Positions 10,683 to 44,991 of a stretch of 64,000 bases of DNA are shown piece by piece (position 1 is the first letter of the stretch; the number at the start of each line of letters is the position of its first letter). Under the pieces are notes generated by a model, which was not told the origin of the DNA, searched no databases, and worked only from the letters and a program-made list of their open reading frames with translations. The DNA is taken from assembly GCF_001695855.1 (NCBI RefSeq), contig NZ_MBSS01000056.1:124001-188000 (forward strand), written 5' to 3'. The position numbers were made by a program, and so were the translations under genes. Source of the stretch: Ensifer sp. LC163 (lineage in GTDB: Bacteria > Pseudomonadota > Alphaproteobacteria > Rhizobiales > Rhizobiaceae).

Positions 10683-10696
10683 ACTTTCAAAAAAAA
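10683..10696. promoter_or_regulatory. ACTTTCAAA plus A-tract motif upstream of puuD
   Basis: ACTTTCAAA with a following A run lies about 75 bases upstream of the puuD start, in the 147-bp puuD/LysR divergent region. It shares ACTTTCAAA with the sites at 18343-18358 and 25751-25766. A TATAAAAT-like stretch directly follows on the plus strand. Similarity is seen; regulatory use is inferred. Confidence 0.4.
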
Positions 10697-10755
10697 CTAT
10701 AAAATCGCGACGGAATGGATGCGTTACATAAGGCCCGGAGGAGAAATCGGGAGGC

Positions 10756-11670
10756 ATGTCATATCTGGACAATGTGCGCGTCTTCGTACGCGTCGTAGAG
10801 CTTGGAACACTGTCGGCGGCTGGTCGTGATCAGCGCGTAACGCCGGCGGTTGCCAGCAATAGAATCAAAGAGTTGGAACGCCACATGGGCGTTCGGCTGT
10901 TCAATCGAACGACACGAAAGCTGACCCCGACGGAACACGGTCGTGTGTTCTACGACGGAGCCGTCAAGATCCTCGAAGCGGTCAACGAGGCGGAAAATGC
11001 CATCGCGGATCTGTCGCACAATCCGAAGGGCGCGCTGAAGATTACCGCTCCGCTAGGGATAGGTCGGCGGCTGATCGCCTCGGGCATTCCGGAATTTCAC
11101 GACAAGTATCCGGATATCGAGGTGCGGCTGCGGCTCTCCGACCACAACGTCGACATCCTGTCGGAAGGGGTCGATGTCGCCTTCAAGCTTGGCATTCTCG
11201 AAGACTCGAACCTGCGCATGCGCGGCATCATGAATTGCGAGCGGGTCGTCTGCGGCGCACCCGCCTACTTCGAAAAACGCGGGATACCGCAGACGCCGGA
11301 CGATCTCATCGCCGACAAACACGACTGTCTGCTGCTGCGTTACCCCGGGTCCAAGGAATACTTCTGGACGTTGCAGACGCCGGAGGGCGTCAGGAAATTT
11401 GAAGTGACCGGACCGTACGATTCCGATGACGGCGATGTGCTGACGCAATGGGCGCTCGACGGGCGCGGCATCATCAACAAGCCGCTTTTCGAAGTGAAGA
11501 GCCACATCAATACCGGCGAACTGGTACCAATCCTGGCGGCGACACCGCCGCTCGGCGTGCAATTGGCCGCGATCTATCCGCACAAGCGCTTCCAGGATCC
11601 GAAGGTGCGGCTGATGATCGACTATATGGCGGAGCGCTGTCAGCGGCTGATAGGCAGGATGCTGACCTGA
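10756..11670 (+). CDS. LysR family transcriptional regulator
   Basis: 304 residues. The N-terminal helix-turn-helix (residues 1-60, MSYLDNVRVFVRVVELGTLSAAGRD through LGVRLFNRTTRKLTPTEHG-like text) is followed by a periplasmic-binding-like effector domain. GGGAGG lies just before the ATG. It is divergent from puuD-guaD, so control of urate and guanine degradation is the natural guess. The effector is unknown, and some LysR proteins of this subgroup control unrelated targets. Confidence 0.87.
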   Translation: MSYLDNVRVFVRVVELGTLSAAGRDQRVTPAVASNRIKELERHMGVRLFNRTTRKLTPTEHGRVFYDGAVKILEAVNEAENAIADLSHNPKGALKITAPLGIGRRLIASGIPEFHDKYPDIEVRLRLSDHNVDILSEGVDVAFKLGILEDSNLRMRGIMNCERVVCGAPAYFEKRGIPQTPDDLIADKHDCLLLRYPGSKEYFWTLQTPEGVRKFEVTGPYDSDDGDVLTQWALDGRGIINKPLFEVKSHINTGELVPILAATPPLGVQLAAIYPHKRFQDPKVRLMIDYMAERCQRLIGRMLT

Positions 11671-11707
11671 CGCCCCGCCGCGGTAAAACAGCGCTCTCTT
11701 CCATGGA

Positions 11708-12688
11708 CTACGGTACGAGCACGATCTTGCCGATCGTGCTTCGCGTTTCCATGGCGCGGTGCCCCTCTGCCGCTTGTCCCAGCGGAAACCGACCGCCCAC
11801 GTGGACCTTGAGCTTCCCGTTTTCGACGCGACGGAACAGATCGCCGAGGTCGGCCTTCAGGGCTGAAGGCGCGAGCAACGGCAATAGGGCGAACCCACGC
11901 AGAGACTGATTGGCCGACAGCACCTGTTCGATATCGGCTGCTTCGAGTTCGAAGCGGCCCATCGCGCCGAACACGAGGTCGCCGCCTGGCGCCAGAACGC
12001 CAAGCGCCGACTTAGTGAAGGATCCACCCACCATGTCGTAGATCGTCTCGACGGGCCCACCCGCCGGACGCACCCCGAGCGCCGCCTGCCAATCCGCCGC
12101 CCGGTAGTCGATCGCAAGGTCCGCGCCAAGCGTGCGCGCGAACGCAACCTTCTCGCTGCCGCCCGCGAGCGCGATAACCGTTTTAGCACCCGCCTCCTTT
12201 GCAAGCTGAATGAGCAGCGAGCCGACGCCACCGACGGCAGCTGACACCAGCACGGTCTTGCCCCGGGGATCGCTTTGCCGAACGAGATGAAGCGCCGTCA
12301 GCCCCTGAATCATCAGCGCTGTCGCCACCTCGAACGAAACGTCGTCAGGGATCGGCACGAGTGCGCCAGCATCGATGGCGACATATTCGGCGCAGCCACC
12401 CACCCCGCGCGCGAAGGCGAACATTGGCACCGCAACACGGGCGCCAATCGCGACCGTCTGCGTGCCTTCGCCCAGCGCCTCGACAACACCCGCCACCTCG
12501 ACGCCCGGCACCATCGGCAAATCAGGCGTGACCGCATATCGATCCTGCCGCATCAAAACTTCAAAGAAGTTGAGCCCGGCCGCCTCAACTCGCACCAGGG
12601 CTTCGCCGCGCTTGGGCACTGGCGTCGGCATGTCGACGAGTCGAAGCACTTCGGGGCCGCCGAAGGAGCGATATTGGATTGCTTTCAT
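11708..12688 (-). CDS. Zinc-independent MDR oxidoreductase (NADPH:quinone reductase-like)
   Basis: 326 residues of the medium-chain dehydrogenase/reductase superfamily. The GroES-like N-terminal half has PGVEVAGVVEALGEG near residue 61. The Rossmann half has VLVSAAVGGVGSLLIQLAKEAG near 148, the NADPH-binding motif. The catalytic-zinc Cys/His ligands of alcohol dehydrogenases are absent, pointing to the quinone oxidoreductase branch. GGTGGAG precedes the ATG. It is divergent from an HxlR regulator, a common pairing for redox or quinone stress genes. Confidence 0.85.
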   Translation of the reverse strand: MKAIQYRSFGGPEVLRLVDMPTPVPKRGEALVRVEAAGLNFFEVLMRQDRYAVTPDLPMVPGVEVAGVVEALGEGTQTVAIGARVAVPMFAFARGVGGCAEYVAIDAGALVPIPDDVSFEVATALMIQGLTALHLVRQSDPRGKTVLVSAAVGGVGSLLIQLAKEAGAKTVIALAGGSEKVAFARTLGADLAIDYRAADWQAALGVRPAGGPVETIYDMVGGSFTKSALGVLAPGGDLVFGAMGRFELEAADIEQVLSANQSLRGFALLPLLAPSALKADLGDLFRRVENGKLKVHVGGRFPLGQAAEGHRAMETRSTIGKIVLVP

Positions 12689-12787
12689 GGATCTCCACCT
12701 AATTTGATTGGCTTCGATCTGAAATTAGCCTTACGCTCCGGGTCAGCTCTACACACCCTTTTGTTCCATACTGACCTGTTGGTAACT

Positions 12788-13165
12788 ATGGTCGATATCA
12801 TCAAGCGACTGCCGTCACTGCCATCCGAGCGAGCGCTCAAGGTGATCTCCGGCCGATGGAAGGCAGTCATCCTCTATCATCTGTTCGACGGTCCGAGGCG
12901 ACTCTCGCAGTTGCGACGGCTGGTGCCAGCCGTCAGCCAGAAAGTGCTGATCCAGCAACTGCGCGAGATGGAAGAACACGGCCTCGTCCATCGCGAGATC
13001 TTTCGCGAAGTGCCGCCCCGAGTGGAATATTCGGCAACGGCTCTGGGACAGAGTCTTGAGCCGGTCCTGCTCGCCCTTTGCGAATGGGGGCAGCGTCACG
13101 CCGAAGAACTGGGTGAATTCGATCAGGTCGGCGACTGCGTCATCCGACCGCGCCAAAGCGCCTGA
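12788..13165 (+). CDS. HxlR family winged-helix regulator
   Basis: 125 residues, typical for HxlR/YodB-type repressors, which often sense electrophiles or quinones through cysteines. The core is ALKVISGRWKAVILYHLFDGPRRLSQLRRLV (given in parts: ISGRWKAVILYHL near residue 17, GPRRLSQLRRL near 33) and a wing with EVPPRVEYSATALG near 75. The ATG at 12788 is chosen because homology begins there; a longer reading frame upstream overlaps the divergent promoter. The ribosome site is weak. Its divergent neighbour, the MDR oxidoreductase, is the likely target. Confidence 0.82.
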   Translation: MVDIIKRLPSLPSERALKVISGRWKAVILYHLFDGPRRLSQLRRLVPAVSQKVLIQQLREMEEHGLVHREIFREVPPRVEYSATALGQSLEPVLLALCEWGQRHAEELGEFDQVGDCVIRPRQSA

Positions 13166-13167
13166 GG

Positions 13168-14037
13168 TCAGGCGCCGATGCGCTTGCCTGCCTTGACCGA
13201 CGAAACGGCGGGTGCTTCCCAATGGTAGTTGAGCGCGGCGGTCATGATCTCGGCAGCGGCCAGGGCCGCAATGACGGCCGGCCTCTTGTCCTTCACCGCC
13301 GTGCCGCCGATCGGGCAGATGAGACGGTCGAAGAGATCGGGCCGGCCGATTTCCCGCGACAGCCAGCTCTTGAAGGTTGAGCGCTTGGTCTTCGAACCGA
13401 TCATCCCGACATAAGACGCGTCGTCACGCCTAAGCGCCTCGGCAGCGATCAGGAAGTCGAGCGCGTGGTCATGGGTCAGGATCACAAAGGCGCTTCCGGG
13501 CGGTGCATCACGGACCACCGCCTCGGGCATCGCCGTCAGACAAGTCTCGATGCCGTGAATGTCGGCGGCCGAAAGCTCATCCTCGCGCGTGTCGACGAGG
13601 ATGGTGCGCACCGGCACAAGCGACAGCGCCATCGCCAGTGCATCGCCGACATGTCCGGCGCCGAAAACATAGACATGGGGTCGACTGGCAAACTCCAGAT
13701 CGCTGCGTTCAATCAGCATGGCCGCTTTCTCCCGATCAATGCGCGTGAAGGCCAGCGCGACACGCCCGCCGCAACACTGGCCGATCTCGGGGCCGAGCGG
13801 GATCGTCATCGTATCGGCGTCGTCGCCGCGCTTGAGCGCGCGCCGCCCATGATCGATCGCCATATATTCGAGCTGGCCGCCGCCGATGGTGCCGAAAAGG
13901 CCGTCCGGCGCCACCAGCATCCAGGCGTCGGTGTCGCGTGGCGTCGAGCCAGCGGCACCCGTCACCTCGACCAGCACGCAGTCCGGCTCGCGGCGCAGGA
14001 AGTCCCTGATATCCTCTCTGCTCGCAACCATCGCCAT
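13168..14037 (-). CDS. xdhC: Xanthine dehydrogenase accessory protein XdhC
   Basis: 289 residues. The XdhC/CoxI N-terminal domain has VTGAAGSTPRDTDAWMLV near residue 23 and GTIGGGQLEYMA near 47; the Rossmann C-terminal half has VYVFGAGHVGDALAMAL near 123. The family binds and sulfurates molybdenum cofactor and inserts it into XdhB. The ATG (14035-14037) overlaps the xdhB stop as TGATG, showing tight coupling. It is the last gene of the uraH-xdhA-xdhB-xdhC operon. Confidence 0.93.
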   Translation of the reverse strand: MAMVASREDIRDFLRREPDCVLVEVTGAAGSTPRDTDAWMLVAPDGLFGTIGGGQLEYMAIDHGRRALKRGDDADTMTIPLGPEIGQCCGGRVALAFTRIDREKAAMLIERSDLEFASRPHVYVFGAGHVGDALAMALSLVPVRTILVDTREDELSAADIHGIETCLTAMPEAVVRDAPPGSAFVILTHDHALDFLIAAEALRRDDASYVGMIGSKTKRSTFKSWLSREIGRPDLFDRLICPIGGTAVKDKRPAVIAALAAAEIMTAALNYHWEAPAVSSVKAGKRIGA

Positions 14038-16388
14038 CAATCCTGTGCCACCACCTCTTGCCTTGCAGCGGTCCGTAGCCGCTCGATCGCCATCAGCACC
14101 CGCTCCGGCGTCGCCGGCGCGTCGATGCGCGGAGGGATACGATACTCCGCAACGCTCGCGGCTGCCATCGACAAGGCTTCCAGAACCGAAATGCCCAGCA
14201 TGAACGGCGGTTCCCCGACGGCCTTCGACCGGCGGATCGTTTCCTCGCGATTAACAGACCATTCGGCCAGGCGGACGTTGAACACGCGGGGACGATCGGA
14301 GGCAAGCGGGATCTTGTAGGTCGACGGCGCATGCGTGCGCAGCCGCCCCTTGGCGTCCCACCATAGTTCCTCGGTGGTCAGCCAGCCCATGCCCTGAACG
14401 AACGCACCCTCCACCTGGCCCAGGTCCAGTGCCGGGTTCAGCGACCGGCCGACATCGTGCAGGATGTCGGTGCGATCGACCTGATATTCGCCGGTCAGCG
14501 TATCGACGCTGACTTCCGAGCAGGACGCGCCATAGGCATAATAGAAGAACGGACGGCCGCGGCCCTCCGAGCGGTTCCAATGGATCTTCGGCGTCTTGTA
14601 GAAGCCGGCCGCCGAAAGCTGGATGCGGGCGCCATAGGCGAGCTTGATGAATTCGCCGAAAGCCAAGCGTTCCGCGCCGATGCGCACGGTATTCGGCTCG
14701 AAGGCGACATCGGCTTCGCTAACACTCCAGCGTTCGGCGGCAAAACGCACCAGCCGCGCCTTGATTTGCTGCGCCGCATTGGCGGCCGCCATGCCGTTGA
14801 GATCGGAACCCGAGGACGCCGCTGTCGCCGACGTGTTCGGCACCTTGCCGGTCGTCGTCGCCGTGACCTTGACCCGATCGAGATCGACCTGGAACTCGTC
14901 GGCCACCACCTGGGCAACTTTGGTATAAAGCCCCTGCCCCATCTCGGTGCCACCGTGGTTGAGGTGGATCGATCCGTCGGTATAGACGTGCACCAGGGCG
15001 CCGGCCTGGTTGTACTCGGTCTTGGTGAAAGAGATGCCGAACTTGACTGGGGTAAGCGCGATGCCGCGCTTGATGATGTGGTTTTCGCGGTTGAAGGTGA
15101 TCACGGCCTCTCGACGCGCGGCGTAATCCGCCGAGGTTTCGAGCTCCTCGATGATGCGCCCGATGACGTTGTCTTCGACCGTCTGGTGATAGGGCGTGAG
15201 ATTGCGGCCCTCGCCGCCATAGAAGTTGAGCTTGCGGATTTCGAGCGGATCCTTGCCGACGGCATAGGCGACATCCTCGATCATGCGTTCGCCGCCGACC
15301 ATGCCTTGCGGACCGCCGAAGCCGCGAAACGCCGTGTTCGAGACGGTGTTGGTCTTCAGCGGTTTCGAGCGCAGACGGACATTCGGGTAGAAGTAGCAGT
15401 TGTCGGCGTGAAAGAGCGCACGATCGGTGACCGGGCCCGACAGATCGGCGGAGAAACCGCAGCGCGCCGCAAACACCGCATCGACCGCCTCGATGCGGCC
15501 CTCGTCGTCGAAGCCGACCTTGTAGTCGACATGGAAGTCGTGACGTTTGCCGGTCGCCGACATGTCGTCGTCCCGGTCAGGCCTGACCTTGACGGCGCAA
15601 CGGTATTTCTTCGCGGCCAGGGCCGCCACCGCTGCGAAGATATTGGCCTGCGTCTCCTTGCCGCCGAAGCCGCCACCCATGCGGCGCACGTTGACGGTGA
15701 CGGCGTTGGACGGCACGCCAAGCACGGTTGCCACCATGTGCTGGGTTTCGCTCGGATGTTGGGTCGAGGAATAGACCAGGACCTCATCGTCCTCGCCGGG
15801 GATGGCAAAGGAAATCTGGCCTTCCAAATAGAAGTGGTCCTGGCCGCCGATGCGCATCTCGCCTTCGACGATGTTCTTCGCCTTGGCGAAACCGGCTTCG
15901 ATGTCGCCACGCTCCAGCTTCAAGGGATCGATGACCAGCGGATAGTTCGCGGCCACGGCCTCCAGCACGTCTGTCACATGCGGCAGGTCACGGTATTCGA
16001 CCTTGACCTTGGCGGCTGCACGCCTTGCAGCTTCGCGCGACGTGGCAATGACGGCGAAGATCGGCTGGCCGTGGAACTCGACCTTGCCGGTTGCGAACAC
16101 CGGATCGTCGTGCTTGTGGGCGGGGCTGATGTCGTTCTCACCGGGGATGTCGTCGGCAGTCAGGATGCCGATGACGCCTTCGCTGGCGCTGACCGCGTCG
16201 AAATCGATCGACAGGATGTCGGCATGGGCGCGCTGCGACAGGCCGAGATAGCCGTGCAGAGTTCCGGCCGGTTCGGGAATATCGTCGATGTATTCGGCCG
16301 TTCCCGACACGTGCTTGTGGCCGGATTCGTGCCGCTCGTTTTCGTGGACGCCACCGCGGATGCGGTCGATGGGCTGCATCACATTCAT
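14037..16388 (-). CDS. xdhB: Xanthine dehydrogenase, molybdopterin-binding subunit
   Basis: 783 residues. It oxidises hypoxanthine to xanthine and xanthine to urate as the large subunit with XdhA. The N-terminal a/b hammerhead domain (about 25-135) is followed by molybdopterin domains with GGQDHFYLEGQ near 180, RRMGGGFGGKE near 230, the arginine loop AFRGFGGPQG near 345 and the catalytic-Glu segment KAVGEPPFMLG near 735. The ATG at 16388 follows AGGAGG by 8 bases; the GTG at 16397 is inside that ribosome site and is not used. Confidence 0.94.
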   Translation of the reverse strand: MNVMQPIDRIRGGVHENERHESGHKHVSGTAEYIDDIPEPAGTLHGYLGLSQRAHADILSIDFDAVSASEGVIGILTADDIPGENDISPAHKHDDPVFATGKVEFHGQPIFAVIATSREAARRAAAKVKVEYRDLPHVTDVLEAVAANYPLVIDPLKLERGDIEAGFAKAKNIVEGEMRIGGQDHFYLEGQISFAIPGEDDEVLVYSSTQHPSETQHMVATVLGVPSNAVTVNVRRMGGGFGGKETQANIFAAVAALAAKKYRCAVKVRPDRDDDMSATGKRHDFHVDYKVGFDDEGRIEAVDAVFAARCGFSADLSGPVTDRALFHADNCYFYPNVRLRSKPLKTNTVSNTAFRGFGGPQGMVGGERMIEDVAYAVGKDPLEIRKLNFYGGEGRNLTPYHQTVEDNVIGRIIEELETSADYAARREAVITFNRENHIIKRGIALTPVKFGISFTKTEYNQAGALVHVYTDGSIHLNHGGTEMGQGLYTKVAQVVADEFQVDLDRVKVTATTTGKVPNTSATAASSGSDLNGMAAANAAQQIKARLVRFAAERWSVSEADVAFEPNTVRIGAERLAFGEFIKLAYGARIQLSAAGFYKTPKIHWNRSEGRGRPFFYYAYGASCSEVSVDTLTGEYQVDRTDILHDVGRSLNPALDLGQVEGAFVQGMGWLTTEELWWDAKGRLRTHAPSTYKIPLASDRPRVFNVRLAEWSVNREETIRRSKAVGEPPFMLGISVLEALSMAAASVAEYRIPPRIDAPATPERVLMAIERLRTAARQEVVAQD

Positions 16389-16400
16389 GGGTCTCACCTC

Positions 16401-17882
16401 CTAGACGGCAACGGCAATGTTGCGGTCGATCCGGATGTTTCCGGTCGCCTGCGTTTCGAGATAGAAGCGGCGCAGCAGGTTCTTCGCAACCAGCTGGCGA
16501 TACTCCGCCGAGGCCCGCCAATCGGTGAGCGGCGTGAAGTCTTGGTCGAAGGCGGAGATCGCCTGCTCGACCGATGCCTCGCACCAAGCCTTGCCCTTGA
16601 GTGCTGCCTCGACATGAGCTGCCCGCTTCGGGGTTCCGGCCATGCCGCCAAAGGCGATCACCGCATCGCTGACGTCACCGGCACTGTCGAACGTCAGGCG
16701 GAACGCGCCGCAGACGGCGGTGATGTCCTCATCCAGACGCTTGGTGATCTTGTACACGGCAAAGCTGGTGTCAGCTTCGAGGAAGGGAATTTGGACCGCC
16801 TCGACAAATTCGCCGGGCTCACGATCCTGCTTGCCATAGGCGATGAAGAAATCTTCGAGCGCCACGGTGCGGCGGCGAGCTCCCTTGCGCAGCGTCACCG
16901 ACGCACCGAGTGCGATGAGTGCCGGCGGCGTGTCGCCGATCGGTGAACCGTTGGCGATGTTGCCGCCAACCGTACCCATGTTGCGGACCTGCTGTCCGCC
17001 GATCCGGTCCCAAAGCTCGCGCAATTGCGGGAAGTGCTCGGTGATAACGGGATAGGCCTCGGCATAGCTGACACCTGCGCCAAGCGTCACGCCCTTGTCG
17101 TCGACAGTGATACGGCGAAGCTCCTCGAGATGCGTAAGGTGCACGACCGGCGCGATGTCGCGCATGAATTTCGTGACCCAGAGGCCGACGTCTGTCGAGC
17201 CGGCGACGATCGTCGCCTTCGGGTTGGCTTCGAGCACATCGGCGAAATCGTCGACGGAAGCCGGCAGCATGAACAGCTCCGCTCCATCGCCGATCACCAC
17301 GCGGCGACCGTCCTGAAGGCTCGAGAGTTCGCCGGCAATCCGGTCGCGCTCTGCAAACAGTGGATCCTTGCCGAGATCGCCGATGGTCGAAATCGCCTCC
17401 GCGGCGCGAATGATCGCAGCATAGCCGGTGCAGCGACACAGGTTGCCCTGCAGCGCCTTCTCGATTTCGGTGACCGAGGGCTTCGGATTTTCCATCCAGA
17501 GCCCATAGAGCGACATGACGAAGCCGGGCGTGCAGAAGCCACATTGTGAAGCGTGCGTCTCGACCATCGCCTGCTGGACGGGGTGGAGCGGGCCGCCCGG
17601 CGTTGCCAGCGAATCCACCGTCACCACGTGACAGCCGTCGAGCGAGCCGACGAAGCGGATACAGGCATTGACGGATTCATACTTCAGCTGCCCGCCGAGC
17701 AGGCGGCCGACGAGCACCGTGCAGGCGCCGCAATCCCCTTCGGCGCAACCTTCCTTGGTTCCGCGCAGGTTGCGATCGATGCGCAGGAAATCGAGCAACG
17801 TCTGCACCGCAGAAACGTCGGAAAGCTCGACAAGGCGGTGGTTCAGGAGGAAACGGATCGTGTTTCGGATCTGGATGGTCAT
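16401..17882 (-). CDS. xdhA: Xanthine dehydrogenase, [2Fe-2S]/FAD subunit
   Basis: 493 residues. Two plant/thiol-type [2Fe-2S] domains come first, with CAEGDCGACTV near residue 43 and the helical cluster motifs CGFCTPGF near 114 and CRCTGY near 148. The FAD domain of the CO-dehydrogenase type follows, with TIVAGSTDVG near 222 and GGNIANGSPIGDTPPALIALGA near 315. It passes electrons from the Mo site of XdhB to NAD. Twelve bases separate it from xdhB, and it starts 6 bases after uraH. Confidence 0.94.
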   Translation of the reverse strand: MTIQIRNTIRFLLNHRLVELSDVSAVQTLLDFLRIDRNLRGTKEGCAEGDCGACTVLVGRLLGGQLKYESVNACIRFVGSLDGCHVVTVDSLATPGGPLHPVQQAMVETHASQCGFCTPGFVMSLYGLWMENPKPSVTEIEKALQGNLCRCTGYAAIIRAAEAISTIGDLGKDPLFAERDRIAGELSSLQDGRRVVIGDGAELFMLPASVDDFADVLEANPKATIVAGSTDVGLWVTKFMRDIAPVVHLTHLEELRRITVDDKGVTLGAGVSYAEAYPVITEHFPQLRELWDRIGGQQVRNMGTVGGNIANGSPIGDTPPALIALGASVTLRKGARRRTVALEDFFIAYGKQDREPGEFVEAVQIPFLEADTSFAVYKITKRLDEDITAVCGAFRLTFDSAGDVSDAVIAFGGMAGTPKRAAHVEAALKGKAWCEASVEQAISAFDQDFTPLTDWRASAEYRQLVAKNLLRRFYLETQATGNIRIDRNIAVAV

Positions 17883-17888
17883 TGCCGA

Positions 17889-18260
17889 TCAGCTCCCACG
17901 GTAGGTCGAGTAGCCATAGGGCGACAAGAGCAACGGCACATGATAGTGCGCCGCCTCGTCGTCGATACCGAAGCGGATGGGGATGACGTCGAGAAACGGG
18001 TTGGCGCCGCGCGCAGCTTCAGAGCCGAGATAGTCGCCGGCGTGAAAATGCAGCTCGTAGGTGCCAGCCTGCATCAGCGATCCGCTCAACAGCGGTTGAT
18101 CGCAGCGTCCGTCGTCATTCGTCCTGACCGAGCGCAGATGTGTCTGCCGCTCCCCCTCGATACGGTAGAGCTCGATGCGCAGGTCCTTGGCCGGCTTGCC
18201 ACTGGCCGTGTCGAGCACATGGGTCGTCAGACGGCCGTCGTTTCCACCATGAGATTGCAT
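17889..18260 (-). CDS. uraH: 5-hydroxyisourate hydrolase
   Basis: 123 residues of the transthyretin-like family. It hydrolyses the PuuD product 5-hydroxyisourate to OHCU. Signature segments are [14 protein letters not shown] near residue 11, [18 protein letters not shown] at the C-terminus (the family-defining YRGS end), and the catalytic His, Arg and Ser positions lie in these. GGGAGGAG lies ahead of the ATG at 18260; a longer frame upstream has no such site. First gene of uraH-xdhA-xdhB-xdhC and divergent from puuE-uraD. Confidence 0.94.
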
Positions 18261-18342
18261 GCGTCTTGCTCCTCCCGAAGTCAGCTTTCCAGTTCGCAGT
18301 ATCCCGGTGAGCCAGTGCATTGAGAAGCAGGCGGATCATTCG

Positions 18343-18358
18343 AGACTTTCAAATTTTT
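18343..18358. promoter_or_regulatory. AGACTTTCAAATTTTT motif between uraH and puuE
   Basis: This 16-mer is identical to the one at 25751-25766 upstream of azgA and resembles the site upstream of puuD. It lies about 84 bases upstream of uraH and 73 bases upstream of puuE in a 171-bp divergent region. It could serve both operons. It may instead be a TTGAAA -35 element read towards uraH. Confidence 0.5.
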
Positions 18359-18431
18359 TGGGGGGAATGACGCTGCAAAAATCCCGTTAGGAATCGGGTC
18401 GCAGAGACAAATGTCTGGAGGACTGCTTCAA

Positions 18432-19847
18432 ATGAGATACCCCCGCGATCTTCACGGCCATGGCCCGAACCCCAGCACCGTCTGGCCCGACAAGGCGCGG
18501 ATTGCCGTGCAATTCGTGATCAATTACGAGGAAGGCGGCGAGAACTGCGTGCTGCATGGCGACGCCGCATCTGAGGCTTTTCTGTCGGAAATCGTCGGTG
18601 CGCAGGCCTGGCCCGGACAGCGCCACTGGAACATGGAATCGATCTATGAATACGGCGCCCGCGCCGGCTTCTGGCGGCTCCATCGCATGTTCACGGAAAA
18701 GGGCGTGCCGGCGACGGTCTATGGCGTCGCAACCGCGCTGAAGCGTTCCCCTGCCCAGGTGGCAGCCATGCAGGACGCCGGCTGGGAGATCGCCTCGCAC
18801 GGTCTGAAATGGATCGAGCACAAGGATTTCAGTGCGGAACGGGAGCGGGAAGAGATCGCTGAGGCGATCCGGCTGCACACGGTCGTCACCGGTGAGCCGC
18901 CGCGCGGTTGGTACACCGGTCGCTGTTCGGAAAACACGCTCGATCTGGTGACCGAGACCGGCGGCTTCGACTACGTCTCCGACAGCTATGCCGACGACCT
19001 GCCCTATTGGCATGAACATGCCGGCCGCCACCAGCTCGTCATTCCCTATACGCTCGACACCAACGACATGCGCTTTGCGACTGCGCAGGGCTTCAACAGC
19101 GGCGACCAGTTCTTCAGCTATCTCAAGGACAGCTTCGACGTGCTCTATGCGGAGGGTGCGGCCGGTGCGCCGAAGATGCTCAGCATCGGCCTGCACTGCC
19201 GCCTCGTCGGCCGGCCGGGTCGCGCCGCAGCGCTTGCCCGCTTCATCGAATACATCAAGGGGCACGAGAAGGTCTGGCTCGCCCGGCGCATCGATATCGC
19301 ACGCCACTGGGCAAAGACCTATCCGTTCAAGGCCTGGGACGATCGACCATCGCGACTTTCCGAGGCCGACTTTGTCGCTCGCTTCGGCGGCGTCTTCGAA
19401 CATTCCGAATGGATCGCCAGACGCGCATTTGTCGGCGAATTGTCCGCCGCCAACGACACGGCCATCGGACTGGCTGCGGCGCTGACCACAGTCTTCCGCG
19501 CGGCAACGCAAGAAGAGCGTCTTGCCGTCCTCAACGCTCACCCGGATCTCGCCGGCAAGCTGGCGCAGGCAAAGCGGCTGACCGAAAGCTCGACCAGCGA
19601 ACAGGCCTCCGCCGGCCTCGACGCCCTGACCGATCACGAGCGCGCACGTTTCACCGAACTCAACAATGCCTATGTCGAGAAATTCGGTTTCCCCTTCATC
19701 ATCGCAGTCAGGGGCCGCAGCAAGGAGGACATCCTCGCAGCCTTCGAAAGCCGGATCGGGAACGATCGCGACAGCGAGCTTGAGACGGCCTGCCGCCAGG
19801 TGGAAAGGATTGCGCTTCTCCGCCTCAAAGACATGCTGCCGAGCTGA
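18432..19847 (+). CDS. puuE: Fused allantoinase (PuuE) and OHCU decarboxylase (UraD)
   Basis: 471 residues with two enzymes in one chain. Residues 1-300 form a cofactor-independent polysaccharide-deacetylase-type allantoinase, with RIAVQFVINYEEGGE near 18 and WEIASHGLKW near 118. Residues about 310-471 form OHCU decarboxylase, with the HPDLAGKL catalytic motif near 368 and EKFGFPFIIAVRG near 415. The protein makes S-allantoin from OHCU and opens it to allantoate. ATG 18432 has GGAGG 10 bases ahead; an in-frame ATG at 18411 lies before that site. Allantoicase follows after 10 bases. Confidence 0.93.
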   Translation: MRYPRDLHGHGPNPSTVWPDKARIAVQFVINYEEGGENCVLHGDAASEAFLSEIVGAQAWPGQRHWNMESIYEYGARAGFWRLHRMFTEKGVPATVYGVATALKRSPAQVAAMQDAGWEIASHGLKWIEHKDFSAEREREEIAEAIRLHTVVTGEPPRGWYTGRCSENTLDLVTETGGFDYVSDSYADDLPYWHEHAGRHQLVIPYTLDTNDMRFATAQGFNSGDQFFSYLKDSFDVLYAEGAAGAPKMLSIGLHCRLVGRPGRAAALARFIEYIKGHEKVWLARRIDIARHWAKTYPFKAWDDRPSRLSEADFVARFGGVFEHSEWIARRAFVGELSAANDTAIGLAAALTTVFRAATQEERLAVLNAHPDLAGKLAQAKRLTESSTSEQASAGLDALTDHERARFTELNNAYVEKFGFPFIIAVRGRSKEDILAAFESRIGNDRDSELETACRQVERIALLRLKDMLPS

Positions 19848-19857
19848 GCCCCTTGCG

Positions 19858-20880: not shown

Positions 20881-20909
20881 ACGACCAACATAGGACGGAG
20901 GAGCGTCAC

Positions 20910-24067: not shown

Positions 24068-24166
24068 TCGAGGGCGGTTGAGCCACCGTCCGCCGCCAAG
24101 CGCAAAAAGGCCGGAGCCGCAGGAATGTCCACGGTCCGGCCAGCCTTCGCGGGGGGAAGGTATGAG

Positions 24167-24197
24167 AGGCCGGGGCATCGTTTGCCCCGGCCTTTTT
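24167..24197 (+). terminator. Rho-independent terminator after the ferredoxin gene
   Basis: AGGCCGGGGCA (24167-24177) pairs perfectly with TGCCCCGGCCT (24183-24193), followed by a T run to 24197. It stops the P450-ferredoxin transcript just before the end of the convergent permease gene. Confidence 0.88.
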
Positions 24198-24198
24198 C

Positions 24199-25491
24199 CT
24201 ATTCGGCGAAGAAGGCGAAGCGCACGATGAAGAGCGCCGCGACCAACTGCGTTGCCGGATGGATGACGCTCCACTTGCCGGTGAACACCTTGAGCACGAC
24301 ATAGCTCACGAAGCCGAAGGCAAGGCCGTTGGCGATCGAGTAGGTAAAGGGCATGGCGAGTGCCGTGAGTGCGGCAGGCGCCGCTTCCGTCAGGTCGTCC
24401 CAGTCGACTTCCGTCAGTTCGCGCATCATCAGGCCGGCGACATAGAGCAGTGCCGGTGCCGTCGCATAGGACGGGACGGCCGCTGCCAGCGGCGAGAAGA
24501 ACAGCGCGGCAAGGAAGAGCACGCTGACGGTCAGCGCCGTCAGACCCGTGCGGCCGCCAGCCTGGACGCCCGAGGCGCTTTCGACATAGGCCGTGGTGCT
24601 GCTGGTGCCGATCAGCGAACCGGCAACGATGGCGGTGCTGTCGGCGAGAAGCGCGCGGCCGAGACGGCTCGGCTTGCCTTCTTCGACCAGCTTGGCGCGC
24701 TTGGCCACACCGATCAACGTACCCGTGGCATCGAAGACTTCGACGAGCACGAAGACGAGGATCACGTGGACCAGGCCGCCATGCAGCGCGCCCATGATAT
24801 CGAGCTGCATGAAGGTCGGCGCGATGCTCGGCGGGGCGGAAACGATGCCCTTGAACTCGCTGACACCCAGCAGCATCGACAGGATGGTGACGACGAGGAT
24901 GCCGATCAGGATCGAGCCGCGGACCTTGAGCGAATCGAGCACGGCGATGACGAAAAAGCCAAGGATCGCCAGCAGCGGACCGGTCTGCTTCAGGTCGCCG
25001 AGGCCGACCAGCGTCGCCGGATTGTCGACGACGATACCGGCATTCTTCAGTGCGATGATACCGAGGAAGAGACCGATACCGGTAGCAATTGCGCTTCTGA
25101 GCGAATGCGGAATGCCGGCGATCAGCCAGCTTCGGACCCCTGTTACGGTCAGGATCAGGAAGATCACGCCGGAGATGAACACGGCGCCCAGCGCCTGCTG
25201 CCAGCTGAAGCCGAGGGCTGCAACGACGGTGAAGGCGAAGAAGGCGTTGAGGCCCATGCCCGGCGCCATGCCGATCGGCCAGTTGGCGACGAGCGCCATG
25301 ACGGCCGAACCGAGCGCCGCGGCAATACAGGTCGCGACGAAGACGGCATCCCTATCCATGCCCGTGGTCGACAGAATGTCGGGGTTGACGAAGATGATGT
25401 AGGACATCGTCAGGAATGTCGTAACGCCGGCGATCACCTCGGTGCGCACGGACGAGTCATGCTCTTTTAACTTGAAAAGTCGTTCAAACAT
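24199..25491 (-). CDS. AzgA-type purine base permease (guanine/hypoxanthine)
   Basis: 430 residues with about 12 membrane spans, of the AzgA/NCS2-related family that imports adenine, guanine and hypoxanthine by proton symport. It starts MFERLFKLKEHDSSVRTEVIAG; GVTTFLTMSYIIFVNP near residue 22 is a hallmark, and MAPGMGLNAFFAF near 75 and ALLADSTAIVAGSLIGTSSTTAYVESASG near 275 (given as SLIGTSSTTAYVESASG) are conserved. GGAGGAAAT lies directly before the ATG at 25491; longer frames upstream lack one. It fits the purine-degrading genes around it. The exact base is inferred. Confidence 0.88.
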   Translation of the reverse strand: MFERLFKLKEHDSSVRTEVIAGVTTFLTMSYIIFVNPDILSTTGMDRDAVFVATCIAAALGSAVMALVANWPIGMAPGMGLNAFFAFTVVAALGFSWQQALGAVFISGVIFLILTVTGVRSWLIAGIPHSLRSAIATGIGLFLGIIALKNAGIVVDNPATLVGLGDLKQTGPLLAILGFFVIAVLDSLKVRGSILIGILVVTILSMLLGVSEFKGIVSAPPSIAPTFMQLDIMGALHGGLVHVILVFVLVEVFDATGTLIGVAKRAKLVEEGKPSRLGRALLADSTAIVAGSLIGTSSTTAYVESASGVQAGGRTGLTALTVSVLFLAALFFSPLAAAVPSYATAPALLYVAGLMMRELTEVDWDDLTEAAPAALTALAMPFTYSIANGLAFGFVSYVVLKVFTGKWSVIHPATQLVAALFIVRFAFFAE

Positions 25492-25750
25492 ATTTCCTCC
25501 CTTGGCGGCGTCGCCACGACGCAGCCGAACGACAGAGATCGGGACACAGTCTCCTCCAGTACCCGACCGGTGCATTTCGATCATCCCCGGATAATCCGGT
25601 GCGATCGCATCACGAACCGTTTGCGGCCCGTGCCGGGCGGGCGATCGTCCGCCCCCTTGAGACGACGCGAATGCCCTTGTGCACAGCCTGCGGATTGTGC
25701 GTCTTCCCGCGGCCGACCGCTAGCCGTCCATTCCAGGGTTCGGCGATGAA

Positions 25751-25766
25751 AGACTTTCAAATTTTT
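25751..25766. promoter_or_regulatory. AGACTTTCAAATTTTT motif upstream of azgA-type gene
   Basis: Identical over 16 bases to 18343-18358. It lies 260 bases upstream of the permease start, in the same orientation relative to the permease as the puuD and uraH sites have to their genes. It is 158 bases upstream of copZ on the other side. Confidence 0.45.
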
Positions 25767-34558: not shown

Positions 34559-34590
34559 GACCAGGCCGAACTGAAGGAAAGGAGCGTCCG

Positions 34591-35058: not shown

Positions 35059-35084
35059 CGCAGGCATGCATGGGCGATATAGCC

Positions 35085-35765: not shown

Positions 35766-35959
35766 CGGTACTGTCCTCTTCTGCGCCACTCAGGCTTCGA
35801 ACGAAAGGCGATGAAAACACCGGCGCACTGTTCTGGTTCCGGCGGTTTTCGTCTATACCGTTTACCACTTCGATCAAACCGAAAGGGCGCCCCGGCAGAC
35901 GCAAATCTGGGGAATTCGACGGGCCCTGCTCCAACAGACATGCAAGGAACTGCCAGACA

Positions 35960-37141: not shown

Positions 37142-37351
37142 TCGGATCCTGTCTCGCTTAGAATCGCGACGGCCGCTGTTGCGCTGCACGTCTGGAACGA
37201 GGACCAGCCCGAGCAGATCCGAGGCAGACGTCCACGCCGCAGCAAACTCCGGCGACATGCCGACCGCGTTACGCAGGGACGCCTCCTGCCTCCGGGTTCG
37301 CGGTGTTCAGCGAAAGCAGTCGCGGGGCGACAATCGTCGCCCCTTGGTACA

Positions 37352-40053: not shown

Positions 40054-40059
40054 TGCTGG

Positions 40060-41088: not shown

Positions 41089-41860
41089 AACGGGAAAATC
41101 CTAGGAAGCGTTCGGCAAGGAAAACGATGCCGATGGACATGAAGGCGAGCAGCGCCGAAAGGGCCGCAACCGACGGGTCATAGGTGATCTCCATGTAGGA
41201 GAGCATGTCGATCGGCAGCGTGCGCACGCCCGGGCCGGACAGGAACAGCGAGACCGGCACCTGGTTGAAGCTCGTCACGAAGCCGAGGATGAAGGCGGCG
41301 AGAATGCCGCTGCGAATGTTCGGCATCACCACACGGAAGAAGGCGCCAGCGCGCGAGGAGCCGAGCAGCACCGCCGCCTCCTCGATGTCGGAGCGCAGGT
41401 TGTTGAGGCTCGCCGACACGACGCGCACGGCATAGGGCAGCACCAGCGCCGTATGCGCAAGGAACAGCGCCAGGGTGATGTTGAAACCGAAGGGCACGAC
41501 GATATAGCGCAGCAGCGCCAGGCCGACGATGATACCCGGCACGATGATCGGCAGGGACACGATCGTGCGCACGGTCTCGCCGAAGGGCAGCTTGTAGCGC
41601 GAAAGGGCGTAGGATGCGGGAATGCCGAGCACGAGTGCCATGGCGGTACCGCCGATGGCAAGGAACATCGACACCGCAAAACTTTCACGGAAGCTTTCGA
41701 CGGTGAAGACCTTGGCGACCCATTTCAGCGAGAACCCCTGTGGCGGGAAGGCCAGGGTCTCGCCGCCCGACAGCGATGCCGCGACGATGATGAAGAACGG
41801 CCCGATCAGGAAGGCGATCACCAGGAGCAGGACGAGGGGAGAAAAGACGCGGGGAGTCAT
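41081..41860 (-). CDS. ABC transporter permease (PotC-like)
   Basis: 259 residues with about six membrane segments. The EAA-type loop DIEEAAVLLGSSRAGAFFRVVMPNIRSGI near residue 175 contacts the ATPase. It overlaps the other permease gene by 4 bases and the ATPase gene by 8 bases. Family members carry polyamines or related solutes. Confidence 0.9.
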   Translation of the reverse strand: MTPRVFSPLVLLLVIAFLIGPFFIIVAASLSGGETLAFPPQGFSLKWVAKVFTVESFRESFAVSMFLAIGGTAMALVLGIPASYALSRYKLPFGETVRTIVSLPIIVPGIIVGLALLRYIVVPFGFNITLALFLAHTALVLPYAVRVVSASLNNLRSDIEEAAVLLGSSRAGAFFRVVMPNIRSGILAAFILGFVTSFNQVPVSLFLSGPGVRTLPIDMLSYMEITYDPSVAALSALLAFMSIGIVFLAERFLGFSRYV

Positions 41861-42684
41861 CGCTTGTTCCTCGCGGTGGCGAGCCGTTTCAGGAGCAGAT
41901 TGGCGGCAAAGCTCATGACGATCAGGATGAAGGCAATGACGCTCGCCGAGACGAAATCACTGGCGACGGTGACGCGCTGATAAAGCAGCGTTTCGAGCAT
42001 CAGCACCTTGGAGCCGCCGAGGATCGCCGGGGTGATATAGGCGGTCAGCGAACCGGTGAAGACCAGCGTTCCGCCAATGACGAGACCTTCCTTGGTCAGC
42101 GGAAGGATGACCTTCCAGAACACCTGGAACCAGTTGGCACCCAATACGCGCGCCGCTGGGATGGCGTCCTTCGGCATGTTCTCGAGCGCACTGATCAGCG
42201 ACAGGATCATCAGCGGCAGAAACAGCTGCAACAGGCCGATGAACACGGCTGTCTCGGTGAAGAGAAAGCGGATCGGTTCGTCCGAAAGGCCGATGAGCTG
42301 CAGCGCCTGGTTGACGATGCCGGTGCGCCCGAGAATGACGATCCAGGCATAGGTTCGCGCGACCGACGAAATCATCAGCGGCAGCACGACGAGGCCGATC
42401 ATCTGCCCCTTGTTGCGCGGCGAAAGATTGACGATCGCAAAGGCTGCGGCATAGCCGATCACGGCAGAGACGGCCGTCACCATCAGCCCGAGCCGGAACG
42501 TGCGCAGGAAGACGGTGCGGTTCAGCGGGTCGGTGAAGAAATCGACATAGGCGACAAGCGACCAGCTGTCGGCGCTGCGAAAGCCTTCGGCAAGCAGAAT
42601 GACGACAGGCGCCAGAAAGACGATCGCCGCAAAGACCGCCGCCGGCAAAGCGAGCGCCAATGCCTCGGCGCGGTTCTGAAACAT
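41857..42684 (-). CDS. ABC transporter permease (PotB-like)
   Basis: 275 residues from ATG 42684, which has AAAGGAAG 7 bases ahead; a TTG at 42711 is less likely. About six membrane segments, with the loop ENMPKDAIPAARVLGANWFQVFWKVILPLT (as ARVLGANWFQVFWKVILP near 185). It forms the transport pore with the PotC-like protein. Confidence 0.9.
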   Translation of the reverse strand: MFQNRAEALALALPAAVFAAIVFLAPVVILLAEGFRSADSWSLVAYVDFFTDPLNRTVFLRTFRLGLMVTAVSAVIGYAAAFAIVNLSPRNKGQMIGLVVLPLMISSVARTYAWIVILGRTGIVNQALQLIGLSDEPIRFLFTETAVFIGLLQLFLPLMILSLISALENMPKDAIPAARVLGANWFQVFWKVILPLTKEGLVIGGTLVFTGSLTAYITPAILGGSKVLMLETLLYQRVTVASDFVSASVIAFILIVMSFAANLLLKRLATARNKR

Positions 42685-42751
42685 CCCTGGTCTTCCTTTC
42701 GTCGCGTTCAATCATTGCGGGTCGGTTGAGGTCGCCGGACAGCCGCAAACT

Positions 42752-42774
42752 GCCCCCATCATGGTGATGGGGGC
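42752..42774. terminator. Intercistronic hairpin between binding-protein and permease genes
   Basis: GCCCCCATCA (42752-42761) pairs perfectly with TGATGGGGGC (42765-42774) with a 3-base loop. It lies in the 105-base gap between the substrate-binding protein gene and the permease genes. Such hairpins often raise binding-protein mRNA over permease mRNA. No U run is seen on the minus strand. Confidence 0.65.
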
Positions 42775-42789
42775 TTTTGGCGTTGGCTG

Positions 42790-43812
42790 TTACTGGCCGA
42801 CCTGGGCGTTCCACTCGGAAAGCCAGGCTTCGCGGTTGTCGAGGGCGACTGCCGACGGAATGAGCTTGAGGCTCTTCACGGTTTCCTCGCCATAGGTGAG
42901 GTTTTCAGCGATCTCCGGCGCGACCTTCACGTCCTTGTTGGCCGGGCTGTCGACCAGCTTTTCGGCAAGGGCCGTCTGGATTTCGGTCGAGAGCCAGAAG
43001 TCCATGAACTCCAGCGCCAGGTCCTGGTTCTTGGCGCCCTTGGTCAGAACCATGACGTTCATGCCGCCGGTCTGGCCTTCCTTCGGCGCCGCCCACTTGA
43101 TCGGCAGGCCGAGCTTGGTGAAGCCTTCCCAGGAGAAACGACCGATCGGAGCTGCCCAGATTTCTTCCTGCTGCATCAGCTGCACGAGCTGCGAAGACTT
43201 GACGTAGAAGGTGACGATGTCGTCCTTCTTCGCGCCGACGGCGGCAATGGCTTCCTTCAGATCTGGCGTATTCTTGCCGATCGCCTCACCGACCATGTAG
43301 AGCGCCGGCGGGCCCTGGTTGGTGGTGACGTTCGGGAAGGCAACGTGGCTGGCGTTCTTCTCGTCGAGCAGGTCGGCCCAGGAGTTCACTTCCATCTTGT
43401 CGGAGCGATAGACGATCGACGTTGCGTAGAAGGTGTAGCCGACGCTCATGCCGTCGCCGTTCGGATCCTTGGCGATATCGTAGAGCTTGTTGAAGTTCGT
43501 GAGCTTCGTGTTGTCGATCTTCTCGATCAGGCCGGCGCGCGAGGCCGAGAGAGCGTCAGCCATGGAGACGACCGCCATGTCGACAACCGGGCTCGCCTTG
43601 TTGGCTTCCATCTTCGCCAGGCGCTCGACGCTGTTGCCGGTCTCCACCACCAGCTTGCAGCCGCATTTGGCTTCGAAGGGTGTGTAGACCAGCTCCTTGA
43701 AAGCGTCCTGGGCAAAACCGTAGACGGAAATGGTCAGCGTCTTTTCCTGGGCGGAAGCGGCATTGGCGCCGACGAGCAAAAGCGCGCTGGAAGCGAGCAG
43801 GATCTTCTTCAT
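42790..43812 (-). CDS. ABC transporter substrate-binding protein (PotD/iron type)
   Basis: 340 residues. Signal peptide MKKILLASSALLLVGANAASA is followed by a periplasmic-binding protein of the spermidine/iron/thiamine class (VYGFAQDAFKELVYTPFEAKCG near residue 33). It starts in a 4-base overlap with the lacI-type stop. The ligand is unknown; nucleosides or purine bases are the inference from the operon. Confidence 0.88.
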   Translation of the reverse strand: MKKILLASSALLLVGANAASAQEKTLTISVYGFAQDAFKELVYTPFEAKCGCKLVVETGNSVERLAKMEANKASPVVDMAVVSMADALSASRAGLIEKIDNTKLTNFNKLYDIAKDPNGDGMSVGYTFYATSIVYRSDKMEVNSWADLLDEKNASHVAFPNVTTNQGPPALYMVGEAIGKNTPDLKEAIAAVGAKKDDIVTFYVKSSQLVQLMQQEEIWAAPIGRFSWEGFTKLGLPIKWAAPKEGQTGGMNVMVLTKGAKNQDLALEFMDFWLSTEIQTALAEKLVDSPANKDVKVAPEIAENLTYGEETVKSLKLIPSAVALDNREAWLSEWNAQVGQ

Positions 43813-44894
43813 GGCTGGTGTTCTCCTTCTGGGGCTGAGGTTCTGGCGTTGGCAGTCGTCTGGCCAGGCTGGAATTGTATCCTGGGCGGTGCGGCGCTCG
43901 ATTGCCGCACGACCAGCTGCATCGGCACTTCGGCGTCGTCGGCGGTTACCGGCGCGCCGATGGCCGCATCCGTCGGATCGCGCTCGCCGATCGCCTTTAC
44001 CAGCGCTCCGACGGCGATCGCGGCAATCCGGGTCATGTCCATGCGTGCGGTGGTCAGCGCCGGCGTCACCACCGGCGACCAGATGAGATCGTCAAAGCCG
44101 GTGACGCTCGCCTTTTCCGGCACGTTGATGCCGGCCCGCTGCAACTCGGTCAGTGCGCGGAGCGCGTGAAGATCGGAGACGCAGGCAAAGGCGGTAAAGC
44201 CCTCCGCAACCTTCTCGGCGAGGCCGAGCGGACAGCCCTTGCCCTGCTCACGCTCCAGCGGCTCGATCCACAGCGTTTCAACGAACGCGCCCTCGGCAAG
44301 CGCCGAGCGAATACCGCCGATGCGATCGTTCTGCACGTTGGAGGCAGGATTGTTGCCGATGACGAGAACGCGCCGGTGGCCAAGCGCCTTCAGGTGTTCG
44401 GCGATCTGCCGGCCACCGCCCCAATGGTCGGCGGCAACCGTATTGCCCGGTGTCGACGGCGTATCGATAACGGCCACGGGACAGCCGACATCGGTGATGC
44501 GCGTGCCACGCCGAGGCACGATCACCATGCCGTCGACGTCACGGTCGATCAACCGCTCGATGGCCTTGGTCTGGGTGGTGACGTCACCGCGGGAGTCGGC
44601 GATCAGAACGCCGTAGCCGGCCGAAGACGCAGCCAGTTCGATCGCCTGGGCGATCTGCGGGAAGAGCGGATTGGCAATATCGGGAAGCACGAGGCCGATG
44701 GCGGCAGTGCGGCCGGTGCGCAGCGCCCTGCCCGCGAGGCTCGGGACATAGCCGAGTTCAGCTGCCGTCGCGCGGATCTTCTCGGCCAGTTCGGCAGAGA
44801 CACGCCCCTTACCGGAGAGCGCGTTGGAAACCGTCGCCGCGGAGACGCCCAGTGTTCTGGCAATCCTCGTCAGTTTTGGTCCGGAACGCGCCAA
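43809..44894 (-). CDS. LacI family transcriptional repressor
   Basis: 361 residues. The helix-turn-helix and hinge occupy residues 5-60 (LTRIARTLGVSAATVSNALSGKGRVS) and the ligand domain follows with GLVLPDIANPLFPQI near 71. The start codon is TTG with only a weak ribosome site, which may keep levels low. It is the first gene of a seven-gene unit (regulator, binding protein, two permeases, ATPase, nucleoside hydrolase, ade). A palindromic operator lies 22 bases upstream, suggesting autorepression. Confidence 0.88.
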   Translation of the reverse strand: MARSGPKLTRIARTLGVSAATVSNALSGKGRVSAELAEKIRATAAELGYVPSLAGRALRTGRTAAIGLVLPDIANPLFPQIAQAIELAASSAGYGVLIADSRGDVTTQTKAIERLIDRDVDGMVIVPRRGTRITDVGCPVAVIDTPSTPGNTVAADHWGGGRQIAEHLKALGHRRVLVIGNNPASNVQNDRIGGIRSALAEGAFVETLWIEPLEREQGKGCPLGLAEKVAEGFTAFACVSDLHALRALTELQRAGINVPEKASVTGFDDLIWSPVVTPALTTARMDMTRIAAIAVGALVKAIGERDPTDAAIGAPVTADDAEVPMQLVVRQSSAAPPRIQFQPGQTTANARTSAPEGEHQP

Positions 44895-44915
44895 GGCCGT
44901 GTTTTCCGTTATCGA

Positions 44916-44933
44916 TGATTAAACGATTAATCA
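44916..44933. promoter_or_regulatory. LacI-type operator of the purine uptake operon
   Basis: TGATTAAACGATTAATCA, a palindrome with central CG as in LacI-family operators; 7-base arms are perfect (TGATTAA and TTAATCA). It is 22 bases upstream of the lacI-type start codon. Confidence 0.65.
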
Positions 44934-44976
44934 AGCGATATATCAGATTCCCTTCACTGTCGAATCCTTTTGCCGG

Positions 44977-44991
44977 CTCTCGAAATTTTTG
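44977..44991. promoter_or_regulatory. Degenerate copy of the purine-region motif
   Basis: CTCTCGAAATTTTTG matches 12 of 15 bases of CTTTCAAATTTTTTG at 18346-18360. It lies 83 bases upstream of the lacI-type start, in the same orientation and at a similar distance as at puuD and uraH. It is weaker than the others. Confidence 0.25.

What the first reader, a model, noticed from the sequence alone, without database searches (positions are those of the whole stretch)
10683..44991. Shared ACTTTCAAA + A/T motif upstream of four purine operons
AGACTTTCAAATTTTT occurs twice, identical over 16 bases, at 18343-18358 (between uraH and puuE) and 25751-25766 (upstream of azgA). ACTTTCAAA with an A run is at 10683 upstream of puuD, and a weaker form (12 of 15) at 44977 upstream of the lacI-type purine operon. 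All four lie in the same orientation relative to minus-strand purine operons, and three are 75-84 bases from the start codon. This suggests one regulator, or one promoter type, shared by the scattered purine modules. The azgA copy is farther off (260 bases), and TTGAAA read from the motif could simply be a -35.
Basis: partly seen in the sequence, partly recalled or inferred. Interest (0 to 1): 0.72.

Follow-up and report, generated by a model that had tools for sequence, protein, structure and literature searches.

The report
Operator sites of a purine-breakdown regulon

Summary
Three of the four places hold up. AGACTTTCAAATTTTT is at 18343 and 25751, ACTTTCAAAAAAA at 10683. In the own 6.5-Mb assembly ACTTTCAAAWWWW occurs four times: these three and one inside a long open frame. 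All 16 genus genomes searched keep the three. The fourth (44977) is not conserved; the lacI operon has its own palindrome, kept in 16 of 16. Two sites lie between divergent genes: uraH/puuE, and puuD/a LysR-type regulator (10756-11670, +). In family genomes with full-length puuE, the uraH/puuE site is found in 78 of 78 with that regulator at >=65% identity, 1 of 17 with a 50-64% relative, 0 of 28 without (cut-off set afterwards). Of the 80 closest named regulator genes, 79 have the site upstream. Predicted -10 hexamers lie 42-54 bases downstream, which fits an activator site near -60/-70 better than a -35. Best reading: operator of the adjacent LysR regulator (S. meliloti SMb21291 by gene order), controlling xanthine-to-allantoin catabolism and, in Ensifer and some relatives, azgA. 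Binding, effector and direction of control are inferred.

The parts
18343..18358 (+). Operator in the uraH(-)/puuE(+) intergenic region, AGACTTTCAAATTTTT; conserved footprint about 18339-18369 (to GGGGGGAATG)
10683..10705 (+). Operator in the puuD(-)/lysR(+) intergenic region, ACTTTCAAAAAAAACTATAAAAT; overlaps a likely lysR -10 (TATAAA 10698-10703)
25751..25766 (+). Operator upstream of azgA, AGACTTTCAAATTTTT, overlapping the 13-base palindrome TGAAAGACTTTCA
10756..11670 (+). LysR-type transcriptional regulator, proposed to bind the three operators; 89% identical to the S. meliloti protein
9370..10608 (-). puuD, membrane urate oxidase (urate hydroxylase)
   Evidence: Urate_ox_N; one search names the S. 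meliloti gene
8018..9373 (-). guaD-like amidohydrolase downstream of puuD; the S. meliloti gene at this place is annotated guanine deaminase
17889..18260 (-). uraH, hydroxyisourate hydrolase (start set at 18260)
13168..17882 (-). xdhA (16401-17882), xdhB (14037-16397), xdhC (13168-14040), downstream of uraH on the same strand
18432..19847 (+). puuE, allantoinase, divergent from uraH
24199..25491 (-). azgA, purine permease, with a predicted leader of about 196 nt
18298..18303 (-). predicted uraH -10 (GATACT), 42 bases downstream of TTTGAAAG
10635..10640 (-). predicted puuD -10 (CATAAT), 43 bases downstream of TTTGAAAG
25694..25699 (-). predicted azgA -10 (CACAAT), 54 bases downstream of TTTGAAAG
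44977..44991 (+). REJECTED fourth copy upstream of lacI: not conserved
44916..44933 (.). Palindrome TGATTAATCGTTTAATCA (7-base arms, 16 of 18 bases symmetric) upstream of lacI, in 16 of 16 genomes of the genus: probable operator of that separate LacI-type regulator

Best explanation
The motif is the DNA-binding site of the LysR-type regulator encoded at 10756-11670, divergent from puuD. Shown by sequence: three sites in the same orientation relative to uraH-xdhABC, puuD-guaD and azgA; conservation across the family; near-perfect co-occurrence with the regulator gene. Inferred: the protein binds each site about 60 bases (puuD, uraH) or 70 bases (azgA, one helical turn further) upstream of transcription start and, when a purine intermediate (xanthine or urate most likely) is present, recruits RNA polymerase, switching on xanthine to urate to allantoin catabolism, allantoinase (puuE) and, in Ensifer and some relatives, purine uptake. 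At its own gene the site runs into the likely lysR promoter, which suggests autorepression.
For: Own genome: 4 matches of ACTTTCAAAWWWW in the 6.5-Mb assembly, 3 of them these sites, the fourth inside an 878-codon open frame. Genus: the three sites in 16 of 16 genomes, 48 of all 100 CTTTCAAAWWWW matches (assigned by position); the reversed-pattern control gave 14. Co-occurrence: matrix score of at least 5 upstream of puuE in 78 of 78 genomes (45 genera) with the regulator at >=65% identity, 1 of 17 at 50-64%, 0 of 28 without; the matrix was trained on 58 of the 78 and the cut-off set after seeing the scores. Exact ACTTTCAA, no training: 59 of 78, 2 of 17, 0 of 28. Only genomes with uraH detected divergent: 1 of 12 and 0 of 13 in the two lower groups. 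Around the 80 closest of 196 regulator relatives in named contigs: site upstream of the regulator in 79, of uraH/puuE in 58 of 60 divergent pairs. Of 7 stretches upstream of regulators only 55-61% identical, 6 hold a TTTCAA site, 5 beside puuD and 1 beside xdhA. In 8 loci where puuE is not beside uraH, the site stays upstream of uraH. The second puuD paralogue lacks the site in 14 of 14 inspected; puuD itself has it in 16 of 16. S. meliloti carries the site at all three promoters. -10-like hexamers peak at offset 42 (uraH) and 43 (puuD), and 54 is second at azgA.
Against: No binding, expression or start-site data were seen. The co-occurrence is not corrected for phylogeny, and genera with and without the regulator do not overlap. 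A looser pattern also matched 1 of the 13 regulator-less divergent genomes (G016, 263 bases upstream). A strict conserved T-N11-A dyad is not shared: the promoters share the CTTTCAA half, the partner half differs. azgA lacks the strict site in 22 of 33 loci with at least 300 bases upstream (11 of 50 have it in all) and in 25 of 30 family loci. The -10 words are not uniform: CATAAT in 20 of 99 puuD and TTTAAT in 17 of 74 uraH sequences at the best offset. Several other offsets also exceed the shuffle maximum, including 18 at azgA and, barely, 15 at puuD. A regulator encoded elsewhere that co-varies with this gene cannot be excluded.
Confidence: 0.77

Rival explanations
1. TTGAAA is simply the -35 element of ordinary vegetative promoters with an A/T-rich upstream element.
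For: TTGAAA is read in the direction of puuD, uraH and azgA; weaker -10-like hexamers sit at offset 18 at azgA and 15 at puuD.
Against: Conservation runs well beyond a hexamer. The best -10-like hexamers lie at 42 (uraH) and 43 (puuD), and 54 outranks 18 at azgA. The pattern is nearly unique in the genome. By the matrix it is missing upstream of puuE where the regulator gene is missing (0 of 28).
Confidence: 0.1
2. The site binds another protein encoded elsewhere (a second purine sensor or a nucleoid-type A-tract binder), and the LysR gene merely travels with the pathway.
For: Long A/T tracts flank the core; no strict LysR dyad is shared by the three promoters.
Against: The site is most constant at the LysR gene's own promoter (79 of 80). 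By the matrix it is absent in 13 of 13 regulator-less genomes that keep divergent uraH/puuE; one (G016) holds a loose TTTCAA match 263 bases upstream. The core is not spread over the genome as a nucleoid site would be.
Confidence: 0.12
3. The repeats are an RNA leader element, such as a xanthine riboswitch.
For: azgA has a long predicted leader, conserved in part.
Against: No Rfam family in the window at gathering score; at E up to 10 only two weak matches in 9000-46000, both at 24107-24201 and well under their gathering scores. The site lies upstream of the predicted transcript in all three promoters.
Confidence: 0.02

Closest known systems
Cupriavidus necator XdhR, a LysR-type xanthine-inducible system (PMC7057948; passages seen)
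   Same: LysR-type regulator named for xanthine dehydrogenase, from a survey built on divergent regulator-target pairs; induced by xanthine (16-fold, Km 13 uM in the paper's table).
   Different: Its sequence was not compared here, so orthology is untested. The regulon proposed here also covers urate oxidation, ring opening, allantoinase and a permease, with several sites.
Classical divergent LysR-type systems such as MetR and IlvY (PMC5002191; passages seen)
   Same: Regulator divergent from its target, shared regulatory region, activation of the target with repression of the regulator's own gene.
   Different: Those have clear dyads (TGAAnnTnnTTCA for MetR) and 2-3 inverted repeats. Here a half-site plus an A/T tract is conserved; of the three window sites only azgA has a perfect 13-base palindrome.
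Klebsiella hpx genes with a LysR-type HpxR (recalled; the paper sought was not held; one search listed nothing relevant)
   Same: LysR-type control of purine catabolism (recalled).
   Different: Different genus, gene set and presumably operator; not compared.

Membership tests
LysR-type regulator operator / regulon | Adjacent gene encodes a LysR-type protein | tested here: met
   LysR-type NCBIfam models over nearly the full length (YafC 203.8 bits), though that equivalog's cut-off (470) is not reached; 5 of 6 solved matches are named LysR family, the best a putative transcriptional regulator
LysR-type regulator operator / regulon | Regulator divergent from a target, site between them | tested here: met
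   puuD divergent in 79 of 80 loci, site upstream of the regulator in 79 of 80
LysR-type regulator operator / regulon | Conserved T-N11-A dyad | tested here: inconclusive
   imperfect dyads with different centres; azgA TGAAAGACTTTCA fits T-N11-A; TTTCAA-N7-TTGAAA upstream of two diverged regulators, one beside puuD (G071), one beside xdhA (G138)
LysR-type regulator operator / regulon | Site near -60/-70 of the activated promoter | tested here: inconclusive
   -10-like hexamers at 42, 43 and 54 bases; predicted, not mapped. The expected position of such sites is recalled
LysR-type regulator operator / regulon | The protein binds the site and responds to a small effector | not testable with these tools
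   needs binding and reporter assays
Orthologue of C. necator XdhR | Reciprocal best match and shared operator | not tested
   the C. necator sequence was not fetched
Ordinary vegetative -35 element | -10 element about 17 bases from TTGAAA | tested here: inconclusive
   top offset 42 at uraH and 43 at puuD, and 54 above 18 at azgA, which speaks against it; weaker signals at 15 (puuD) and 18 (azgA) remain
Rfam riboswitch | Covariance-model match | tested here: not met

The most novel reading that the evidence does not exclude
One previously unassigned LysR-type regulator (S. meliloti SMb21291 and its orthologues) is the master switch of urate-centred purine catabolism across much of Rhizobiaceae. 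It works through a half-site-plus-A/T-tract operator that tolerates different partner halves; the Ensifer group and some relatives recruited the permease azgA to the regulon by placing the same site one helical turn further upstream.
Probability: 0.5. Interest if true: 0.5.

Novelty: new member of a known kind. Interest (0 to 1): 0.42.

Why it matters
It gives a candidate regulator, its operator, its target list and predicted promoters for purine use in rhizobia, including S. meliloti, where a standard deletion and reporter test is straightforward. It also separates this regulon from the LacI-type nucleoside operon next door, which has its own palindrome.

Tried and rejected
Riboswitch: no Rfam match. 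Fourth site at 44977: not conserved and scores as background. General promoter type: pattern too rare. An extended pattern with the GGGRAWT block found 2 of 347 genomes across the order; it is too strict even for genomes known to carry the site (G087 and G168 were in that search and gave none), so it says nothing about spread beyond the family. AAATTTGAAAGTC in the family: 63 places in 55 of 247 genomes, 7 reversed-control matches. Of the 30 loci fetched, 26 were from other genera: 15 upstream of uraH, 1 between puuD and lysR, 10 with neither. A shared strict dyad was not found. Three of the 14 'other' matches (L375, L376, L378) were not inspected; of the 11 inspected, 9 lie upstream of uraH and 2 elsewhere (L322, L324). 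Two of the 60 divergent uraH/puuE pairs (L327, L328) lack a strict match. A second full-length puuE copy in G186 and partial puuE matches were left out of the 123.

Novelty searches: (listings; one search listed none) showed no description of this operator or of SMb21291 as a purine regulator in the open-licence library, which is partial; passages of nine papers were read (with 73, 72, 82, 83). [quoted passage not shown] meliloti (Walsh, Waterloo) is cited in PMC4562309 and was not read; it may already name the regulator.
Full report
Observation. The 16-mer is present twice exactly, and ACTTTCAAA with an A run once more. Surroundings: uraH(-) and puuE(+) are divergent around the 18343 site; puuD(-) and a LysR-type gene (+, 10756-11670) are divergent around the 10683 site; azgA(-) and an ORF that looks like a copper chaperone (+, from 25924; recognised by eye from its MTCGHC motif, not run against a library) flank the 25751 site. 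The fourth site, upstream of the lacI operon, is by eye not kept in the 15 other genomes of the genus. What is conserved there, in 16 of 16, is TGATTAATCGTTTAATCA (44916-44933), with perfect 7-base arms and 16 of 18 bases symmetric, the likely operator of that LacI protein.

Specificity. In the window's own assembly (6.5 Mb, 96.93% complete) ACTTTCAAAWWWW occurs 4 times: the three sites and one inside an 878-codon open frame. In 16 genomes of the genus the exact 15-mer GACTTTCAAATTTTT occurs 26 times, with no control match. By eye, the 26 loci printed are 16 azgA-type and 10 uraH-type. The looser CTTTCAAAWWWW occurs 100 times; by position, 48 are the three orthologous sites in 16 of 16 genomes; the reversed control occurs 14 times.

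Conservation. Of 199 family genomes searched, I took the stretch upstream of one near-full-length puuE in each of 123. Exact ACTTTCAA on the puuE strand: 59 of 78 genomes with the LysR protein at >=65% identity, 2 of 17 at 50-64%, 0 of 28 with none at E 1e-80. A matrix trained on 58 sites finds the rest of the first group (AGTTTCAAA, TCTTTCAAA and similar): at a cut-off of 5, set after seeing the scores (lowest 5.5), 78 of 78, against 1 of 17 and 0 of 28. Limited to genomes where uraH is detected divergent from puuE, the two lower groups give 1 of 12 and 0 of 13; a looser pattern gave 0 of 12 and 1 of 13 (G016, 263 bases upstream), and 73 of 78 in the top group. The Fisher value (1.4e-22 on 78/0 against 1/24) ignores relatedness, and the genera of the groups do not overlap. 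The footprint is AAAAGACTTTCAAAWWTTTT..GGGAATG. Positions 0-7 (ACTTTCAA) are invariant by construction of that set; T at 11-13 (58, 56 and 51 of 58), G at 18-19 (58 and 57) and A at 21 (58) were not selected for.

The regulator's own promoter. A scan of named bacterial genomes kept the closest 80 of 196 relatives (83-99% identical) with flanks. The site lies upstream of the regulator in 79, of uraH/puuE in 58 of 60 divergent pairs, and of azgA in 11 of 50 (11 of 33 with at least 300 bases upstream); 14 of 163 matches in 1.6 Mb lie elsewhere. Of those 14, 11 were inspected: 9 are upstream of uraH (in 8, puuE is not its neighbour; in L344 the contig ends), so the site follows uraH-xdhABC; 2 are unrelated. 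In the 80th locus, a Methylobacterium, the regulator is not divergent from puuD; a site CTTTCAAAAAAA lies upstream of its puuE, and a looser form precedes the regulator. Seven stretches upstream of diverged regulators (55-61% identity) were fetched: G123 and G193 carry ACTTTCAAAC, G128 and G149 GACTTTCAAAAWA, G071 and G138 TTTCAA-N7-TTGAAA, G197 no TTTCAA; the neighbour is puuD in five and xdhA in G138. The second puuD paralogue lacks the site in 14 of 14 loci inspected (of 16 found), while puuD itself has it in 16 of 16.

azgA. Of 30 azgA loci from the family search, 5 carry TTGAAAGT within 500 bases upstream. In S. meliloti (CP050561.1) the sites are present upstream of the regulator, of puuE and, as AAAACTTGAAAGTCTTTCG, upstream of the permease.

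Promoter geometry. Scoring TATAAT-like hexamers downstream of TTTGAAAG, the best offset is 42 at uraH (74 sequences) and 43 at puuD (99); 54 is second at azgA (22), behind the palindrome arm at offset 2. All exceed the largest value of 300 single-base shuffles, but so do several other offsets, because the sequences are related: for example 26 at puuD, 31 and 53 at uraH, 18 and 31 at azgA. The words vary: CATAAT in 20 of 99 at puuD, TTTAAT in 17 of 74 at uraH, CACAAT in 15 of 22 at azgA. In the window these are GATACT 18303-18298, CATAAT 10640-10635 and CACAAT 25699-25694. The site would then sit at about -60, -60 and -70, one helical turn apart. This would also explain why azgA starts 260 bases away: a leader of about 196 nt. 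In the puuE direction the best offset is 34. At lysR the site runs into TATAAA (10698-10703), which suggests autorepression.

Identity of the regulator. The S. meliloti gene at the same place encodes a protein 89% identical. Counting genes from SMb21284 (polysaccharide deacetylase = puuE; passage in PMC2848241) to SMb21294/21295 (Hsp20; passages in PMC12542648 and PMC2848241) along L286 makes it SMb21291. PMC11387232 (passages) lists SM_b21291 as a LysR-family factor among those found only in its bacteroid network. PMC5596199 (passages) reports SMb21286-21288 strongly downregulated, in a passage that follows nitrogen-limitation results. The nearest described analogue is C. necator XdhR (PMC7057948, passages).

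Verdict. A real, specific and old operator; the binding protein is most probably the adjacent LysR-type regulator. It is a new member of a well-known kind of system. Binding, effector and direction of control remain to be tested.

Noticed in passing
window 44916-44933: Palindrome TGATTAATCGTTTAATCA (16 of 18 bases symmetric) upstream of the LacI-type gene of the nucleoside operon, in 16 of 16 genomes of the genus.
   Followed up: partly
window 25491-25690: azgA has a predicted leader of about 196 nt, conserved in part within the genus, with an in-frame upstream start in this window; no Rfam match.
   Followed up: no
L373: Methylobacterium brachythecii carries the regulator (83% identity) beside guaD without divergent puuD, and a CTTTCAAAAAAA site upstream of a puuE only 62% identical: possible capture of a resident gene by an acquired regulator.
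   Followed up: partly
window 17889-18320: The uraH ORF as listed is too long; the likely start is at 18260, with a GGAGGA-like ribosome site just upstream.
   Followed up: yes
L078-L091: A second puuD (73-76% identical) lies on another contig or replicon in 16 of 16 genomes of the genus; its upstream region lacks the site in 14 of 14 inspected, so the two copies are probably regulated differently.
   Followed up: partly
L389, L392, L394, L395, L398: CTTTCAAAATTA recurs at what looks like one orthologous place in five genomes of the genus, away from the purine cluster.
   Followed up: no
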